Shown: positions 13,708 to 32,685 of the stretch, piece by piece | How positions within the stretch are numbered: position 1 is the stretch's first letter | Layout: every line of letters begins with the position of its first letter | DNA from: Muribaculaceae bacterium | GTDB taxonomy: Bacteria > Bacteroidota > Bacteroidia > Bacteroidales > Muribaculaceae | NCBI GenBank assembly: GCA_029071345.1 | Contig: JAIEAO010000037.1 | Span: forward strand, 1 to 36,534 | DNA length: 36,534 bases | Direction: 5' to 3' | Position numbers and translations under genes: made by a program | The notes under the pieces: model-generated | The model's database searches: none | What the model saw: only the letters and a program-made list of their open reading frames with translations | Told to the model about the DNA's origin: nothing

Positions 13708-14952
13708 TTAGTCGAGTTTGTGGATTACGAGGCCGGAACGGAGCTTGGGCTCGAACCATGTGGTCTTCGGAGGCATGATGTTGCCGGTGTCGGCGATGTT
13801 GATGAGCTGATCCATTGTCACTGGATAGAGGGCGAGGGCCATCTTCATCTCACCGCTGTCAACACGTTTCTGGAGCTCTTCGAGGCCACGGATACCGCCT
13901 ACGAAGTCGATGCGTTTGTCGCTGCGGAGGTCGGTGATGCCGAGGATGTCGCGGAGGATAAGGTCGCTGGAAACGGTAACGTCAAGTACGCCGATCGGGT
14001 CAGAATCATCGAATGTTCCGTGCTTAGCGGTCAACGAATACCATTTGCCGTCGAGATAGAGGGAGAAGTTGTGAAGTGCGTTCGGCCGGTAGATCTCTGT
14101 GCCTTTCTCTTCAACCACGAAGTTTTCCTCCAGACGTTTCAGGAATTCCTCAGGAGTGAGACCGTTGAGATCCTTAACCACGCGGTTGTAGTCGATGATG
14201 TTAAGGTGAGAAGCCGGGAAAGCTACAGCCATGAAGTAGTTATACTCCTCATCGCCAGTATGGTTCGGATTCTGTTTTGCTTTCTCTGCACCAACGAGAG
14301 CGGCTGCAGCCGAGCGGTGATGTCCGTCGGCTATGTAAAGATTCGGAATTTTCTCGAATTCTTTGGTTACAGTCTCTATGGTGTTGTCATCCTCTATCAC
14401 CCAGAGTGTGTGACCGAAACCGTCGGGAGCTATGAAATCGTACTCAGGTTCGCCGGCAGTTACATCCTTGATGATTTTCTCAAGCACCTCATTGTCGGGG
14501 AATGCGAAGAACACGGGCTCGATGTTGGCATTGTTGCATCTAACGTGTTTCATGCGGTCTTCCTCCTTGTCACGGCGTGTGAGCTCATGCTTTTTTATGC
14601 GCCCTTCCATATAGTCAGGTACCCAAGCGCCCACTACGAAACCATACTGAGTCCGGCCGTTCATTGTCTGAGCGTAGATATAATAATTCTCCTTTTCGTC
14701 CTGAACGAGCCAGCCATTATCCTGGAATTTCTTGAAATTCTCAACAGCTTTGTCATATACATCGGGATGATGCTCGTCAAAACCTATTTCAAAGTCAATC
14801 TCAGGTTTGATGATGTGGTAAAGACTCTTGAGGTTTCCTTCAGCTTCAGCGCGTGCTTCCTCGCTGTTGAGAACGTCGTAAGGACGTGAAGCCACTTCTT
14901 CCACAAGATGACGGGGTGGACGTACCCCTTTAAACGGTTTGATTCTTGCCAT
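13708..14952 (-). CDS. DUF1015 family protein
   Basis: IKPFKGVRPP...ASRPYDVLNSEEAR, IADGHHRSAAA, NYFMAVAFPASHLNIIDYNRVVKDLNG. Confidence 0.93.
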   Translation of the reverse strand: MARIKPFKGVRPPRHLVEEVASRPYDVLNSEEARAEAEGNLKSLYHIIKPEIDFEIGFDEHHPDVYDKAVENFKKFQDNGWLVQDEKENYYIYAQTMNGRTQYGFVVGAWVPDYMEGRIKKHELTRRDKEEDRMKHVRCNNANIEPVFFAFPDNEVLEKIIKDVTAGEPEYDFIAPDGFGHTLWVIEDDNTIETVTKEFEKIPNLYIADGHHRSAAAALVGAEKAKQNPNHTGDEEYNYFMAVAFPASHLNIIDYNRVVKDLNGLTPEEFLKRLEENFVVEEKGTEIYRPNALHNFSLYLDGKWYSLTAKHGTFDDSDPIGVLDVTVSSDLILRDILGITDLRSDKRIDFVGGIRGLEELQKRVDSGEMKMALALYPVTMDQLINIADTGNIMPPKTTWFEPKLRSGLVIHKLD

Positions 14953-15913: not shown

Positions 15914-17104
15914 TCAGGTGAGGAGGAGGGTGATGAGGAGGTAGGTGAAGTGGGCGACGATGGCTGCCACGAGTCCGCCGATGGTGTGGGCGAGGATGGC
16001 TTTAGGGGTCAGTTCGCGGTAGCCCATTGAGTCAAGCATGGCGGTGTGGGTGCTGAGGTAGCCGCTCCAGCACATTCCGATGGCGGTGAACACTGCGATT
16101 GCGTTTCCGTCGATCCATCCCTGTGAGGCGAAGTTGGGTACAAGACCGAGTGCCGCACCGACAGCTCCCAATGCTGTGATGGGGAAGGCTACGAGGTGAG
16201 GATCAGAGAATCCGAAGAGCCATTCGAAGATGAAGTTTACTTTTGAAGCAAGCCATGGCAGAAGTTCTATCCCTTCGTAGGCCGCGCCAGAGTAACCATC
16301 GGCAGAGGCTGCTCCGAAGGTAAGTATCATTACAAGTGTGGAGATGATGAGAACGCCGGGGATGATTGCGATGCCGACATCCACCCCCATCTTGCCTCCG
16401 TCGAGCAGAGAGTTGAGTATGCGGATAAACACCGATTTGGATTTCACTTTATTCTCGATTTCTTCGATTTTATCGGCAGTGAGTGCCACAGCTTCCTCAA
16501 TTCTATACGATGGGTAAGCCTTGATGATGAACCGTTGCATGAGACGCGTCGAGACTATGCATCCGCAGAATGCACCGAAGAGTCCGACAACCGGCTCGAT
16601 ATAGTAGCCTTGCCCGACCATAAACACCATCACGAGGAGGCCCATGCCGAATGCAGTGCCGAAATTGGTGAGCGATATAAACTGGTATTTCTTGAAATAG
16701 CTGCTGAAGCGCTGGTCCTGCGAGAGGGAGATGATTGCGGGGTTATCGCTCAGGAATGTCATTGTAGCTCCAAGCGCGGCTACGCCCGGGAGATTGAACA
16801 GAGGTTTCATAAGCGGCCGCAGTATATTCTCAAGCAGCTTTACCACACCGAATTCCACAAATAGGCGTCCGATTGCTCCGGTGACAACACAAATACCCAT
16901 TAGATAAAATACCGTGTTGAGGAGCAGATCATGGGCGGTATGCATTATGGTGTTGAGCATATTGGGTAAACCCATGATTGAGCCAATATACCAAAACAAG
17001 GCGATTACAATAACGAGGCATGGCACTCCCGTAGGGATATACCTGGATATAGAGAATTTTTTCTTTCCCTTTTCGTCGGGAGAGATAGATTTGTCGAGTT
17101 CCAT
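15914..17104 (-). CDS. YjiH-like / nucleoside-recognition (Gate) domain membrane protein
   Basis: Multi-TM; FLSDNPAIISLSQDQRFSSYFKKYQFISLTNFGTAFGMGLLV. Confidence 0.8.
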   Translation of the reverse strand: MELDKSISPDEKGKKKFSISRYIPTGVPCLVIVIALFWYIGSIMGLPNMLNTIMHTAHDLLLNTVFYLMGICVVTGAIGRLFVEFGVVKLLENILRPLMKPLFNLPGVAALGATMTFLSDNPAIISLSQDQRFSSYFKKYQFISLTNFGTAFGMGLLVMVFMVGQGYYIEPVVGLFGAFCGCIVSTRLMQRFIIKAYPSYRIEEAVALTADKIEEIENKVKSKSVFIRILNSLLDGGKMGVDVGIAIIPGVLIISTLVMILTFGAASADGYSGAAYEGIELLPWLASKVNFIFEWLFGFSDPHLVAFPITALGAVGAALGLVPNFASQGWIDGNAIAVFTAIGMCWSGYLSTHTAMLDSMGYRELTPKAILAHTIGGLVAAIVAHFTYLLITLLLT

Positions 17105-26737: not shown

Positions 26738-27850
26738 ATGGAAGAAGTAATATATAAGATTGCATTGGGTATGATCCCCCGTGTCACAGCCGATGTCGTG
26801 AGACGTATGGAAGACACCGGTATTACTCTCGAGGACTTCTTCCGTCTTGACATACTCTCCCTCTCCGATGCTTTAGGGCTTAATAGTAAGACCGGATTCC
26901 GCAGTGCCGACCGCGAGGCCGCGTTACAGAGAGCTAAGACGGAATATGAATTTGTAAAACGACATAATATCAAGGTGCTATCTCTGACATCTGATGATTA
27001 TCCATGGCTCTTGAGTGAGATTCCCGATGCCCCTGTAACTCTCTATATGTTAGGAGATACGGATTTGAATGCTAAAGAATCTGTAAGTGTAGTCGGCACG
27101 CGTCGCTTCACTCAGTACGGATTGGATTTTACCCGAAATCTTGTTGAGGATTTAGGTGCTTATTTCCCGGAATTGTTGGTGGTTAGCGGATTGGCATACG
27201 GGGTGGATGCCAGCGCGCATACAGCAGCGTTAGATCACGGATTGCCTACGGTTGGCGTTGTCGCACATGGACTCGACACAATTTATCCGGCCGCTCATCG
27301 CGATCTTGCCCGTAAGATCCTTCACGCCGGAGGAGCATTAATTTCAGAATATCCTTCAAAAGAGACACCTTTCCGCGCTCGGTTTCTCGAAAGAAACCGT
27401 ATTGTGGCCGGACTTAGTCAACTTACCGTCGTGGTGGAATCACCGCTAAAAGGAGGAGCGATGAGCACGGCTACATACGCTTTCAACTATAACCGCGATG
27501 TAATGGCAGTGCCCGGACGTGTCTCGGATGAGACGAGCGCCGGATGCAACCATCTGATAAGAAAAGAGAAAGCCCATCTGTTGACTGCCGCAGCAGATAT
27601 CATAGAGCTAATGAACTGGGAACCGATGGGTGCGAAGGTCACCCCGAAACAGCGCAACCTCTTCCCCGAACTCGAGGGCTTACCTCGTAAAATAGTGGAG
27701 AATCTGAAATTTGAGGCAAATCCCATACCCGTCGATGTGCTTCACAATCAGCTCAACGTCCGCATATCCGAACTAATGTCCGCCCTCACCGAACTCGAAT
27801 TCGACGGTATCATCGTCCGCCACCCCGGCAACCGCTACTCCCTCCCTTAA
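26738..27850 (+). CDS. dprA: DNA-processing protein DprA
   Basis: SVVGTRRFTQYGLDFTRNLVEDL, VVSGLAYGVDASAHTAALDHGLPTVGVVAHGLDTIYPAAHRDLA, GGALISEYP, RFLERNRIVAGLS. Confidence 0.96.
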   Translation: MEEVIYKIALGMIPRVTADVVRRMEDTGITLEDFFRLDILSLSDALGLNSKTGFRSADREAALQRAKTEYEFVKRHNIKVLSLTSDDYPWLLSEIPDAPVTLYMLGDTDLNAKESVSVVGTRRFTQYGLDFTRNLVEDLGAYFPELLVVSGLAYGVDASAHTAALDHGLPTVGVVAHGLDTIYPAAHRDLARKILHAGGALISEYPSKETPFRARFLERNRIVAGLSQLTVVVESPLKGGAMSTATYAFNYNRDVMAVPGRVSDETSAGCNHLIRKEKAHLLTAAADIIELMNWEPMGAKVTPKQRNLFPELEGLPRKIVENLKFEANPIPVDVLHNQLNVRISELMSALTELEFDGIIVRHPGNRYSLP

Positions 27851-27852
27851 AT
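27774..27852 (+). repeat. dprA 3'-end repeat, copy 1 (in frame in dprA)
   Basis: 79 bp matching 28952-29030 at 75/79 positions, offset 1178. Confidence 0.95.
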
Positions 27853-27853
27853 T

Positions 27854-27870
27854 TCTATACTCAGTGTAGA
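27854..27870 (+). other. Small hairpin between dprA and DUF1016 gene
   Basis: tctatac-tca-gtgtaga (one U.G). Confidence 0.4.
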
Positions 27871-27884
27871 AACACTTCAATATA

Positions 27885-28934
27885 ATGACAGAAATGGAAA
27901 TAATACAAAAAACATATTGTAGTGATAACCTTTTATCAGAGATTAAAGGTTATATAGACCGAACTAAGTCGCAAGTTGCTGTTACTGTAAACTCTGCGAT
28001 GACTTTAATGTATTGGCACATTGGAGACAGTATTAATCGTGAAATTATTGGAGGGCATAGGGCAGCGTATGGGAAACAGATTGTTGCAACTTTGTCAAAA
28101 GAGTTGACTGAACAATATGGAGGTCGCGAATTTTCAGAGCGTAACTTATGGAGAATGATGCAGTTTTCATCAAAATTTCCGGATTTACAAATTGTGACAC
28201 CACTGGTGTCACAATTGTCATGGTCACATTTTCTGCAAGTTATGCCATTAGAGGATGATTTAGCCCGTAACTTTTATCTTACGATGGCTGCAGACCAACG
28301 ATGGTCGAAACGAACACTGAAAGCCAAAATAGATGGGATGCTATATGAACGCACAGCAATTGCCAAACAACCTGAAGAATTAATACGCCATGATTTAGAT
28401 GAACTTCGGGATGAGCGGAAAATTACTCCTGACCTCATATTTCAAGATCCCTATTTCCTCGATTTTCTGGGTTTGCAGGGAAATTATTCCGAGAAAGAAC
28501 TTGAAAGTGCTATTGTTTCCGACCTTGAACGCTTTCTTACAGAGTTTGGTAATGATTTTGCCTTCATGGCCCGACAAAAGAGAATCACTTTAGATAATGA
28601 AGATTATTATATTGATCTATTGATTTATCATCGCCGGCTTCGCTGTCTTGTTGCCATAGATCTTAAACTGGGTAGATTTCAGGCTGCTTATAAAGGCCAA
28701 ATGGAGCTTTATTTGCGTTGGCTCGAAAAATATGACATGGTTGCCGGTGAGAATAAACCTATAGGCCTTATTCTATGTGCCGGTAAAAACGAAGAGCATG
28801 TAGAACTGATGCATTTAAGCGATAGCAATATACGTATTGCCGAATATCTTACAAAACTTCCAGATCGCAAACTCATAGAACAGAAATTACAACAAGCAAT
28901 CGAGCGGGCACGTAACCGTTTGAATAATCAATAG
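27885..28934 (+). CDS. DUF1016/YhcG family PDDEXK nuclease domain protein
   Basis: AVTVNSAMTLMYWHIGDSINREI, YGKQIVATLSKELTEQYGGREFSERNLWRM, SQLSWSHFLQVM, YYIDLLIYHRRLRCLVAIDLKLGRF nuclease core. Confidence 0.93.
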   Translation: MTEMEIIQKTYCSDNLLSEIKGYIDRTKSQVAVTVNSAMTLMYWHIGDSINREIIGGHRAAYGKQIVATLSKELTEQYGGREFSERNLWRMMQFSSKFPDLQIVTPLVSQLSWSHFLQVMPLEDDLARNFYLTMAADQRWSKRTLKAKIDGMLYERTAIAKQPEELIRHDLDELRDERKITPDLIFQDPYFLDFLGLQGNYSEKELESAIVSDLERFLTEFGNDFAFMARQKRITLDNEDYYIDLLIYHRRLRCLVAIDLKLGRFQAAYKGQMELYLRWLEKYDMVAGENKPIGLILCAGKNEEHVELMHLSDSNIRIAEYLTKLPDRKLIEQKLQQAIERARNRLNNQ

Positions 28935-28951
28935 ATTGGTTTGTTGTGAGT

Positions 28952-29030
28952 TAATGTCTGCCCTCACCGAACTCGAATTCGACGGCGTCATCGTCCGCCA
29001 CCCCGGCAACCGCTACTCCCTCCCCTAAAT
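28952..29030 (+). pseudogene. dprA 3'-end repeat, copy 2 (orphan C-terminal fragment)
   Basis: Encodes LMSALTELEFDGVIVRHPGNRYSLP* with no upstream dprA sequence. Confidence 0.95.
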
Positions 29031-29047
29031 ATAATTTACATTAAGAA

Positions 29048-29080
29048 AGAGTGTACCAAAATCAAATTTTGATACACTCT
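29048..29080 (-). terminator. Terminator downstream of 29150-29587 gene / copy 2 repeat
   Basis: agagtgtaccaaaat-caa-attttgatacactct; the mismatch becomes G.U on the minus strand, followed by ttctt. Confidence 0.65.
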
Positions 29081-29149
29081 CGTAATATGAATATATAGCC
29101 TAATAATATTCTTACTATATCATTTTTTAATATCGACTATATTGTGTTA

Positions 29150-29587
29150 TTAGTTGCAATAAGGGTTGTTGATTGATACATCTATGGAATCAATCTTAAT
29201 GTCATAAGCTCCTTCCGGTAAAGATAAAGTTCCACTAAGATCAACTTTACCAGATTGATATCCAGCTATATTACCTGTCCATCGAGAATCATATAACGTT
29301 AAAGATTTTCTTCCTTTATTCACTACTTTCCCTCCATCATAAGGAGATGTATGAGATGTTTTCCACTCGTAGTTAACTATTACCTTAATAGAAGCTGATT
29401 GCAGCGGTTTGGAGTGTCCGTTAGTTATAACAAGATTACCACTCAAATGTGAACCAGAGTTCGAGATATAAGCAGTTCCTTCCAAATATGAATCTGTGCC
29501 TGGAATCTTACAAGTTCCATACCCCTCGTAAGCAAAAGCACTTACTGAAGCTACGAGTAAGGTAAATAACAATATTAATCTTTTCAT
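29150..29587 (-). CDS. Small exported protein of unknown function
   Basis: Signal peptide MKRLILLFTLLVASVSAFA; Gly/Ser-rich beta-like mature part. Confidence 0.6.
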   Translation of the reverse strand: MKRLILLFTLLVASVSAFAYEGYGTCKIPGTDSYLEGTAYISNSGSHLSGNLVITNGHSKPLQSASIKVIVNYEWKTSHTSPYDGGKVVNKGRKSLTLYDSRWTGNIAGYQSGKVDLSGTLSLPEGAYDIKIDSIDVSINNPYCN

Positions 29588-29608
29588 AATTATAGTCAGA
29601 AAGCGTGA

Positions 29609-30049
29609 TTAATTCTTTGTAATCCAACCCTCACCATTACAATCGCGACAGGTGACTTTAACTACATTATATCCTTTCCAGTCACATACTCCACAGCCGT
29701 TACCCTGACAGTTTGAACATACTTCTCGGCCATCTACTTTTCCGGTTCCTTTACAAGGTTTGCATCGTACGCGAATCTTTACGTCATCATGATGATCACA
29801 CTCTGAGTCATGTGAACATACTGATGTCATTCCGAGGGAGATGTAATGGTCATGGATCTCAGGTATGCTCTCTTGGGTTTCAGGTTTGATATCATTCTCC
29901 GAACGATATTTTCTACCTTCTTGCCATCCGTCAACGAAACTGTCCATGTTTTCTACGGCTGACTTGCTACTGGTGCTTGCCATCGCGAATCCGGCAAAGG
30001 CTAAAAGACAAAAAGCCTGAGAAATTTTGATAATTTTTTTCGTCTTCAT
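29609..30049 (-). CDS. Exported Cys-rich protein with DnaJ-type zinc-finger (CxxCxGxG) repeats
   Basis: Signal-like N-term; CKPCKGTG, CSNCQGNG, CGVCDWKG, CRDCNGEG. Confidence 0.65.
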   Translation of the reverse strand: MKTKKIIKISQAFCLLAFAGFAMASTSSKSAVENMDSFVDGWQEGRKYRSENDIKPETQESIPEIHDHYISLGMTSVCSHDSECDHHDDVKIRVRCKPCKGTGKVDGREVCSNCQGNGCGVCDWKGYNVVKVTCRDCNGEGWITKN

Positions 30050-30144
30050 AAATATTAGTGATTTAGTTTACTTATCGATGCAAAATTAAATATAAGTGAG
30101 CTATATGGCTTTATGATAGGCGTATATAAAATCCTACGAAACCG

Positions 30145-30381
30145 TCAATTATTTTTACACTCTTCTTCCGTTTCGCATTCGTATAGGGAATCTGAATAGT
30201 ATTTAAAAAAATCTATAGATAAGGCTCGGGAGATAAGTAGGAGTAATTCGGTATTGATAGAAGTCTGGCGAAAAATATAATAGATGTTAGAGCGCTCACA
30301 ATTTATCTTGCGAGCCAACCATGTCGGTGTGCGTTCTTGATTTCGCAACTCATCCTCTATTAACTTACCAATATTCACCAT
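30145..30381 (-). CDS. Short XRE-like HTH protein
   Basis: TPTWLARKINCERSNIYYIFRQTSINTELLLLISRALSIDFFKYYSD. Confidence 0.6.
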   Translation of the reverse strand: MVNIGKLIEDELRNQERTPTWLARKINCERSNIYYIFRQTSINTELLLLISRALSIDFFKYYSDSLYECETEEECKNN

Positions 30382-30428
30382 ATCTCTATATTATTCTGAG
30401 CTGTCTATTAATGGACTTTGGAAAAATA

Positions 30429-30869
30429 TTATGAAGATTGTTTATTAAATATTGCTACAATAATAAGAGTTAGGATATAAGTGGCGATATCTAATAAATC
30501 AAAGGTTCCTCTTATTATCTTACAATATTGTAGAAGTTCTAAACAAAACGGTAATAGAATACTGACTATTGAAATAAAGCGACACCAACCTCCAAGCTTT
30601 AGAAATGGAAGTTGTAATATAAGAAGTGCAGCGTACCAAAGAGCATCCGGCAAGCAATACATAATCCAATATATTATTATATTATTGCTAATATTCAGTG
30701 TGTTAGGTGATGCAATATGTAATTTATCCAGAACATCTTTATTAATCCAAGATAAAAATAAGGTATCTTGTCTAAACATTACATATATTGCTGTTCCCCC
30801 CAATAAGAGTACCAGGGATAATATAATTCTCCGAAAGTCAAAATATGAATTTGGCTGTATTAGCCGCAT
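30429..30869 (-). CDS. VanZ-like membrane protein
   Basis: Four TMs; DALWYAALLI...CLELLQYCKIIRGTFDLLDIATYILTLIIVAIF. Confidence 0.55.
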   Translation of the reverse strand: MRLIQPNSYFDFRRIILSLVLLLGGTAIYVMFRQDTLFLSWINKDVLDKLHIASPNTLNISNNIIIYWIMYCLPDALWYAALLILQLPFLKLGGWCRFISIVSILLPFCLELLQYCKIIRGTFDLLDIATYILTLIIVAIFNKQSS

Positions 30870-30924
30870 TTTGCTGAAATCAATAATGTATTGGTCAAAC
30901 AGCTCAACGACCGCAATAAATTAA

Positions 30925-31099
30925 AAGAGGCGCGAGCTGCTACGCCACGCCTTTAGATGAAGGTGGTAGGAATACCTTTGAGAATAGATGTGGAAATAAC
31001 AGCTCTACGCCATACGATGCAGAGCATTACGACCTCTCTTGTTCTCGATGGTAAGTTTCCTACGCTTTTCATCTACAAGCAGAAGACATAACGCCTCTT
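30925..31099 (-). ncRNA. Rod-like structured ncRNA, candidate 6S RNA
   Basis: Nested collinear pairing aagaggcg/cgcctctt, tagatgaa/ttcatcta, gtaggaa/ttcctac, gctct/agagc; minus-strand promoter TTG-N19-TAAATTTG (-7 box at 31139-31146) and 3' U-tail. Confidence 0.6.
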
Positions 31100-31179
31100 A
31101 TTGAATATGTATTGAATTAACGCATATTAATTCATCTGCAAATTTACAAAATATTTTAGATTATACAAGTATGATATGT

Positions 31180-31210
31180 GCCCCTGTAGGTTTATTAAAC
31201 ATACAGGGGC
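31180..31210. terminator. Strong hairpin downstream of 31238-31570 gene
   Basis: gcccctgta...tacaggggc (9 bp) with inner gttt-att-aaac. Confidence 0.55.
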
Positions 31211-31237
31211 AGAATCAAACAATAGTTATATTGTTTA

Positions 31238-31570
31238 CTATGTAGCTAAATACCACAGAACTCCTGATTGCATGAACTTGTACTTGAAATCAGATCTTCC
31301 TGATGTAACTGTCCTAATTGGAGGAGTAAAAGTCTGATCATTGGTTGAGTATATCCATATCACCCCGTCAGAATCGTATGCAAAATAGAATTTCTCTTGT
31401 TTCCCTTCACGGGGGTTGTCAGGATTGGTTACAGCCATGCCCCAATGAGTCGGATTCGCGGGTCTTGATGCTGAGATAGTTGGAACATCAGTGTTAAATC
31501 CTGCTTCTGATGCAATGCTGATTGCAGATGCGCCCAATAGTAAGGCACTAATTAAAAATAATTTTTTCAT
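31238..31570 (-). CDS. Small exported protein of unknown function
   Basis: Signal peptide MKKLFLISALLLGASAISIASE; Trp/Tyr-rich tail. Confidence 0.55.
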   Translation of the reverse strand: MKKLFLISALLLGASAISIASEAGFNTDVPTISASRPANPTHWGMAVTNPDNPREGKQEKFYFAYDSDGVIWIYSTNDQTFTPPIRTVTSGRSDFKYKFMQSGVLWYLAT

Positions 31571-31701
31571 ACCTATTAATTACAAAGTGATTAAAAGATG
31601 TTGCAAAATTATTTTTATCAAATATTATCAGCAATAAAAGGGCGTAAATAGAATTTACGAATCCGTATAATAATTATACGGTAAAATTTATAACATTTCA
31701 A

Positions 31702-31747
31702 TTGATATAGAAGGTGCAAAGCCGAGACTTTACACCTTCTATATCAA
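31702..31747 (-). terminator. Long-stem terminator of nucleoside phosphorylase gene
   Basis: ttgatatagaaggtgcaaag-ccgaga-ctttacaccttctatatcaa, 20-bp stem, one mismatch that is G.U on the minus strand. Confidence 0.75.
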
Positions 31748-31761
31748 TGGCAAATTTGGTT

Positions 31762-32685
31762 TTAGAATCTTTCGAGGACGGTTTCGACAAGCTTCTTTAC
31801 TTTCGGTTTGTAGTCAGTGTTGGCGTTGTTGAGTCGACGCTCTGCGATGATGCAGCAGACTGTCATTGCGCGGTGACCTAACAGTTTGGAAAGACCTTGC
31901 AGGCAGGCGGACTCCATTTCGAAGTTGGTGATCGGTCTACCGTTGTAGCGGAAGCTTTCAATCTTCTCGTTGAGGTTGGGGTCTGCCAATTTAAGGCGAA
32001 CCATACGACCCTGCGGGGCGTAGAAACCTACGGCTGCTATCGTGTAACCGCGAACCATATCATCACGTCCGATCTTTTCAACCAGCGATGCATCGGCATC
32101 AGCAGTATAGGGGGCTGCCCATGACGCGGACCACTGGGTATGCTTGCAGAACTCGCGTTCAAATTCAAGATCACACACTTTGTCGCGATCAGCATAGAAA
32201 TTCAGGATACCGTCAAAGCCCATTCCTTTCTCGGCAATCACGAAATCGCCGATGTGCAGGTCTTCCTGAAGAGAACCTGACGTACCGATACGAACGATAT
32301 TGAGCGTACGATGTTCGGGTTTCACCTGACGGGTCTTGAAATCGATATTGGCGAGTGCATCAAGTTCGGTAAGAACGATCTCGATATTGTCCGGCCCGAT
32401 GCCGTGTGAGATAGCCATAATCGGCTTACCCTTATATGTGCCTCCGATAGCATGAAATTCGCGGGAAGAAACGTTGTAATCAACTGTGTCGAAATAACTT
32501 GCCACCATATCAACTCGGCCCGGATCACCGACAAAGATGATATTGTCGCGGATCTGATCCGGTTTAAGATGGATGTGAAAAACGCTTCCGTCATCATTGA
32601 TAATCAACTCGGAAGGGGGTATAATTCTTGAATCTGACATAATTTTATGAGTATTAATAATTCGTAGTATTATAGGTCGGAGCAT
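31762..32685 (-). CDS. Nucleoside phosphorylase (uridine phosphorylase-like)
   Basis: FVGDPGRVDMVASYFD, MAISHGIGPDNIEIVLTELDAL, RIGTSGSLQEDLHIGDFVIAEKGMGFDG, TNFEMESACLQGLSKLLGHRAMTVCCIIAERR. Start may be the internal M at MSDSRIIPP. Confidence 0.9.
   Translation of the reverse strand: MLRPIILRIINTHKIMSDSRIIPPSELIINDDGSVFHIHLKPDQIRDNIIFVGDPGRVDMVASYFDTVDYNVSSREFHAIGGTYKGKPIMAISHGIGPDNIEIVLTELDALANIDFKTRQVKPEHRTLNIVRIGTSGSLQEDLHIGDFVIAEKGMGFDGILNFYADRDKVCDLEFEREFCKHTQWSASWAAPYTADADASLVEKIGRDDMVRGYTIAAVGFYAPQGRMVRLKLADPNLNEKIESFRYNGRPITNFEMESACLQGLSKLLGHRAMTVCCIIAERRLNNANTDYKPKVKKLVETVLERF

What the first reader, a model, noticed from the sequence alone, without database searches (positions are those of the whole stretch)
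27774..29030. DUF1016/YhcG nuclease gene inserted at the dprA 3' end with duplication of the last 79 bp
Seen directly: 27774-27852 and 28952-29030 match at 75/79 positions. Copy 1 completes the dprA reading frame; copy 2 encodes the same C-terminus (LMSALTELEFDGVIVRHPGNRYSLP*) with no dprA sequence upstream. The AT-richer DUF1016 gene sits exactly between, giving a 1178-bp repeat-plus-cargo unit. Inference: a cassette carrying its own dprA 3' end entered by recombination (single crossover of a circle, or an integrase acting in trans) and regenerated the gene. No recombinase is present. The target being a natural-transformation gene and the cargo a PDDEXK nuclease makes a defence/DNA-uptake hotspot worth testing.
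Basis: partly seen in the sequence, partly recalled or inferred. Interest (0 to 1): 0.72.

Follow-up and report, generated by a model that had tools for sequence, protein, structure and literature searches.

The report
Lone nuclease gene duplicating its landing site
A single nuclease gene thought to defend bacteria against viruses has dropped in at the end of the host gene dprA and copied the last 79 letters of dprA in doing so, which keeps dprA intact; genes of the same family sit between similar long copies of their landing site in many unrelated microbes.

Summary
In detail: 27774-27852 and 28952-29030 match at 75/79 positions, occur nowhere else in the genome, and enclose a lone DUF1016/YhcG (PDDEXK) gene. 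Copy 1 completes dprA; copy 2 is an orphan. Relatives lack the insert: none of 45 other dprA loci of the genus with at least 988 bp downstream has DUF1016 or a second dprA tail.

The larger result is outside the window. Under one uniform test, 33 of 184 DUF1016 genes lie between direct repeats of 36-233 bp, against 5 of 278 ordinary genes (p=6e-10). Examples copy the ends of unrelated genes: a VWA gene, LysR, hsdM, a hybrid regulator (elsewhere in this same genome), and the 5' ends of rhuM, an SDR gene and an AlbA_2 gene. Other mobile single-gene families (RhuM, AlbA_2, Fic) show it less often but above background.

This matches 'insertion with long target duplication', described for restriction-modification systems since 2000, here with a lone defence-candidate nuclease (PADLOC PDC-S02) as cargo. 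The dprA/DNA-uptake hotspot idea is not supported, and no integrase or terminal motif was found. Whether the duplication formed at insertion or copy 1 was imported with the cassette is unresolved.

The parts
26738..27850 (+). dprA, intact, target gene; its last 77 bases lie in repeat copy 1
   Evidence: Pfam DNA_processg_A 1e-71 and DprA_WH
27774..27852 (+). repeat copy 1 (79 bp), forms the functional dprA 3' end
27853..27884 (+). 32-bp leader of the cassette between copy 1 and the DUF1016 start; begins with the imperfect palindrome TTCTATACTCAGTGTAGAA, not seen at the ends of other cassettes
27885..28934 (+). cargo: DUF1016/YhcG PDDEXK nuclease (349 aa), PADLOC single-gene phage-defence candidate PDC-S02; D240, D244 and K261 invariant in 52 homologues
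28935..28951 (+). 17 bp between the cargo stop codon and copy 2
28952..29030 (+). repeat copy 2 (79 bp), orphan copy of the dprA 3' end
31762..32685 (-). nucleoside phosphorylase gene, the usual neighbour of dprA in the genus; marks the far side of the empty site

Best explanation
[quoted passage not shown] The duplication is longer than the distance from the insertion point to the stop codon, so dprA kept a complete 3' end and copy 2 was left as an orphan. Shown: the repeat, the intact dprA, the empty site in relatives, and that DUF1016 genes in many genomes sit between target-derived repeats of variable length. Inferred: the long overlap arises without a dedicated recombinase, through the host's break repair, either by filling in a break with far-apart nicks or by template switching that re-enters upstream. 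Insertions near gene ends are the ones seen because there the duplication repairs the gene. Inferred from family annotation only: the cargo is a phage-defence nuclease, which explains why it is kept.
For: Direct repeats flank 33/184 DUF1016 ORFs against 5/278 other ORFs of 220-520 aa from the fetched loci (p=6e-10), 0/28 DprA and 1/30 SusD; stable over five thresholds (p from 3e-11 to 1e-4). 26 of the 33 are not tandem DUF1016 arrays. Repeat lengths run from 36 to 233 bp with no preferred value. Unrelated targets: VWA gene 3' end (80 bp, 98.8%), LysR 3' end in Fibrobacter intestinalis ATCC 43854 (52 bp, 100%), hsdM 3' end in an archaeon (158 bp, 82%), 5' ends of rhuM (73 bp), SDR (48 bp) and AlbA_2 (41 bp) genes, and an AraC-type hybrid regulator in the window's own genome (50 bp, 100%). 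Empty sites: dprA-phosphorylase; no DUF1016 after the VWA gene in any of 19 relatives of G048, the VWA and TPR genes lying close together in most. Cassette ends share no motif or inverted repeats. The same signature at RhuM 3/25, AlbA_2 3/26 and Fic 2/28 argues against a mechanism peculiar to the nuclease.
Against: Only genomes of different species could be compared at dprA (nearest DprA 80% identical), so the event is not seen between strains. Codon usage of the dprA tail (C at 76% of third positions, body 25%) and mostly synonymous differences between the copies fit a tail imported from another genome. Some of the 33 repeats are dispersed or promoter-like repeats rather than target duplications (L080, L264, L283). 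No donor copy of the cassette was found, so the junctions could not be examined for microhomology. The DUF1016 genes checked on five plasmids and E. coli yhcG have no flanking repeats.
Confidence: 0.7

Rival explanations
1. Import by homologous recombination: the dprA tail - DUF1016 - dprA tail arrangement formed in another genome, or as a circle carrying a dprA tail, and entered by a crossover in dprA. Copy 1 is then the donor's tail and copy 2 the resident's, or both are foreign.
For: 3 of 4 differences are synonymous, codon positions 1/0/3; rhuM case 0/0/5; hsdM case 6/4/18. The dprA tail is a codon-usage outlier: tail minus body C3 is 0.51 against 0.05+-0.13 in relatives.
Against: Other cases (L198, L200, L302) show changes spread over codon positions, with stop codons in the orphan of L198 and L200, as expected if it decays after duplication. 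L068, L069 and L279 have identical copies. Both copies share the odd codon usage, so it cannot be simply resident versus donor. It still needs a first event that made the duplication.
Confidence: 0.22
2. Site-specific integration at the dprA 3' end by an integrase supplied in trans, the 79 bp being an attachment site (a dprA hotspot).
For: The gene 3' end is regenerated, as in known integrase targets.
Against: 0 of 45 other dprA loci carry DUF1016 or a second tail. Related DUF1016 cassettes use unrelated targets, both 3' and 5' gene ends, with repeats of 36-233 bp and no shared core. No recombinase found near the cassette.
Confidence: 0.04
3. Assembly artefact or chance repeat.
For: The window's genome is a draft of 189 contigs.
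Against: The copies differ at four sites, each has unique flanks, and 75/79 is far above the shuffle maximum of 41. The same structure occurs in cultured isolates, e.g. Fibrobacter intestinalis ATCC 43854.
Confidence: 0.02

Closest known systems
Insertion with long target duplication of restriction-modification systems (Nobusato et al. 2000, Gene 259:99; Furuta et al. 2010, NAR 38:2428; cited in PMC3031569 and PMC3874152)
   Same: Insertion of a small defence-type gene unit with long, variable target duplications of the order of 100 bp, seen by comparison with empty sites; no linked mobile element needed.
   Different: Cargo here is one lone DUF1016 nuclease without a methyltransferase. It occurs in many Bacteroidota, in Fibrobacter and in archaea, and other single-gene families show it too. 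The two original papers were not read: one is not in the library, the other was not looked up.
Integrative elements that regenerate the 3' end of their target gene (tRNA, guaA, prfC and similar integrase targets; own knowledge)
   Same: The target gene keeps a working 3' end through sequence at the insertion.
   Different: No integrase, no fixed target, no constant core, cargo of one gene.
PADLOC PDC-S02 and PDC-S05 (single-gene phage-defence candidates)
   Same: The cargo scores 2e-125 to PDC-S02; RhuM, which shows the same insertion signature, is PDC-S05.
   Different: PADLOC describes the proteins, not how the genes insert. Defence was not tested here.

Membership tests
insertion with long target duplication (as a mode of insertion) | direct repeats of the target, long and variable, flank the insert | tested here: met
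   79 bp here; 36-233 bp at other DUF1016 genes
insertion with long target duplication (as a mode of insertion) | empty site with a single copy in a related genome | tested here: met
   dprA-phosphorylase adjacency in 30/47 relatives, none with a second tail; no DUF1016 after the VWA gene in 19 relatives of G048. Species-level, not strain-level, comparison.
insertion with long target duplication (as a mode of insertion) | duplication made at the moment of insertion from the recipient's own DNA | tested here: inconclusive
   codon-position pattern differs between cases
mobile restriction-modification unit | cargo contains a DNA methyltransferase and its restriction enzyme | tested here: not met
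   only DUF1016 lies between the repeats
integrase-dependent genomic island | tyrosine or serine recombinase with a shared attachment core | tested here: not met
   no recombinase near the cassette; no shared core or target
YhcG / DUF1016 PDDEXK nuclease | DUF1016_N plus YhcG_C domain with intact catalytic residues | tested here: met
   Pfam hits above cut-off; D240, D244 and K261 invariant in 52 sequences; AlphaFold core resembles NucS/EndoMS and Can2 nucleases, weakly
PDC-S02 phage-defence candidate | protects against phage | not testable with these tools
   profile match only

The most novel reading that the evidence does not exclude
Single-gene phage-defence candidates and similar solitary genes (DUF1016, RhuM, AlbA_2, Fic) spread as bare one-gene cassettes by a recombinase-free insertion pathway that makes long target duplications, shared across bacteria and archaea and independent of the cargo's enzymatic activity.
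Probability: 0.3. Interest if true: 0.8.

Novelty: new variant of a known kind. Interest (0 to 1): 0.6.

Why it matters
How lone defence genes move without a transposase or integrase is not known, and the mechanism of long target duplication appears unexplained in the papers I could read since it was named for restriction-modification systems in 2000. The finding gives a simple genomic signature (one gene between two copies of its target), a rate that can be measured (18% against 2%), many examples from 100% identical to decayed, and a reason why host genes survive: the duplication repairs them. It makes a search of strain collections for fresh events, and hence for donors and junctions, directly feasible.

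Tried and rejected
dprA as a hotspot: rejected, no other dprA locus has DUF1016 or a second tail. A link between C3-rich dprA tails and loss of the phosphorylase neighbour looked strong in 30 loci but failed on the wider set: six further loci lack the neighbour and have ordinary tails, and the two supporting genomes are one clade. A conserved cassette-end motif or inverted repeats: none. The 27853 palindrome as a general end: not found at other cassettes. E. coli yhcG as a strain-level example: no flanking repeat, and its absence or truncation in other strains goes with deletions or transposase genes. Plasmid copies (five examined): no repeats; one of them lies between hsdM and hsdS. The regulator hit by the second own-genome cassette has only paralogues at 33-35% in relatives, so no empty site could be shown for it. 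An empty-site search around Fibrobacter LysR was not possible with the handle tried. No solved structure is related by sequence. A strong control hit (L071) is a tandem duplication around a beta-lactamase-like gene, not an insertion.

Full report
OBSERVATION. It is unique in the 2.56-Mb draft genome and far beyond chance: the best 79-mer match in 300 dinucleotide shuffles of the two flanks was 41. Copy 1 forms the end of a complete dprA (26738-27850; Pfam DprA and its winged-helix domain). Copy 2 encodes the same C-terminus with nothing of dprA before it. Between them lies one gene, 27885-28934, with the DUF1016 N-terminal and YhcG PDDEXK domains, 32 bp after copy 1 and 17 bp before copy 2. 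The cassette is AT-richer (G+C 0.38) than dprA (0.49).

EMPTY SITE. In the genus, dprA is followed directly, within 206 bp, by a convergent nucleoside-phosphorylase gene in 30 of 47 other genomes; in the window that gene lies at 31762. None of the 45 other dprA loci with at least 988 bp of downstream sequence has a DUF1016 gene or a second dprA tail (first 30 loci). The closest relative (DprA 80% identical) has the plain arrangement. The window therefore shows a gain. Between copy 2 and the phosphorylase there is a further 2.7 kb of AT-rich DNA with small ORFs, presumably a separate event.

THE SAME THING ELSEWHERE. Of 184 DUF1016 ORFs (from the window's genus and order, from 80 genome contigs of many phyla and from viral contigs), 33 lie between direct repeats of at least 35 bp at E<1e-6 within 400 bp of the gene. 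The same test gives 5 of 278 for ordinary ORFs of 220-520 aa in the fetched loci, 0 of 28 for DprA and 1 of 30 for SusD; Fisher p=6e-10 against the ordinary ORFs, and between 3e-11 and 1e-4 over five thresholds. Seven of the 33 involve tandem DUF1016 arrays; 26 do not. Some of the rest are dispersed or promoter-like repeats, so the true share of target duplications is below 18%. Repeats with at least 92.5% identity flank nine DUF1016 ORFs.

TARGETS. The clearest cases copy the end of a neighbouring gene: the VWA gene of a bat-type operon (80 bp, 98.8%; L008), LysR in Fibrobacter intestinalis ATCC 43854 (52 bp, 100%; L068), hsdM in a Methanomicrobiales archaeon (158 bp, 82%; L105), the 5' end of rhuM (73 bp, 93%; L017), of an SDR gene (48 bp; L295) and of an AlbA_2 gene (41 bp; L302), and the 3' end of an AraC-type hybrid regulator in the window's own genome (50 bp, 100%; L279). 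For L008 the empty site was checked: none of 19 relatives has DUF1016 after the VWA gene, and the VWA and TPR genes lie close together in most of them, while in G048 copy 2 ends at the TPR start codon. RhuM (3 of 25, one of them copying the end of murB), AlbA_2 (3 of 26) and Fic (2 of 28) show the same signature (one RhuM row is the L017 DUF1016 gene and is not counted). These family samples are small, and their difference from DUF1016 is not significant.

WHAT IT IS AND HOW IT LIKELY WORKS. [quoted passage not shown] also PMC3031569, and PMC1643837). I infer a repair-driven insertion: either fill-in of a break with widely separated nicks, or replication that switches to the incoming gene and returns upstream of where it left. 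Because RhuM and Fic are not annotated as nucleases, the cargo's enzyme activity is probably not needed. Gene ends appear as targets because only there does the duplication leave a working gene; this is selection on outcomes, not target choice. At two 5'-end insertions (L072, L295) the cargo reads the duplicated start of the host gene as its own beginning.

IMPORT OR DUPLICATION IN PLACE. The four differences between the window's copies fall at codon positions 1/0/3 with one amino-acid change; the rhuM case is 0/0/5 and the hsdM case 6/4/18, as if the two copies had diverged as working alleles in different genomes. L198, L200 and L302 show changes over all positions, with stop codons in the orphan of L198 and L200, as expected of decay after duplication. 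The last 25 codons of the window's dprA have C at 76% of third positions against 25% in the body, an outlier among relatives, but both copies share this. The question is open; both routes may occur, the second by homologous transfer of an older insertion.

CARGO. The protein is PADLOC's single-gene phage-defence candidate PDC-S02; RhuM is PDC-S05. D240, D244 and K261 are invariant in 52 homologues. A moderate AlphaFold model (mean pLDDT 76) resembles NucS/EndoMS and Can2-type PDDEXK nucleases in its C-terminal core (E about 1e-4); the helical N-terminal part has no clear match. No solved structure is related by sequence. That it defends against phage is inference from family lists; the 2005 analysis found no function for YhcG (PMC1189080).

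VERDICT. The dprA connection is incidental. The general signature is the interesting part: a known but unexplained mode of insertion, until now tied to restriction-modification systems in the papers I could read, applies to lone defence-candidate genes.

Noticed in passing
window 30910-31125 and copies in other genomes (L336, L337, L339, L342, L343): A dispersed element of about 200 bp, 72-83% identical at different loci in nearly 20 of 111 genomes of the genus and once more in the own genome. It folds with 16 of 57 predicted pairs kept through changes on both sides and matches no Rfam family; possibly an undescribed structured RNA.
   Followed up: partly
window 29031-31761: 2.7 kb AT-rich stretch (G+C 0.35) with small minus-strand ORFs between copy 2 and the phosphorylase gene, absent from this place in relatives; apparently a separate insertion.
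   Followed up: partly
L016 and L253 (G054:C31), L285 (G046:C93): Tandem arrays of DUF1016 genes separated by repeats of about 60-135 bp that include the promoter region.
   Followed up: no
L072 and L295: DUF1016 genes whose predicted N-terminus copies the first residues of the downstream host gene (MSKKEFFPPRP, MASKTDL), as if the cassette captured the host gene's start.
   Followed up: no
L311 (IncN plasmid, Citrobacter freundii) and L105 (archaeon): DUF1016 sits between hsdM and hsdS; on the plasmid its ORF overlaps both neighbours by four bases, suggesting it has become part of the type I restriction operon.
   Followed up: no
window 13708-14952 and 15914-17104: Besides the dprA tail, these two genes contain the most C3-rich 25-codon stretches in the window; reason not examined.
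   Followed up: no
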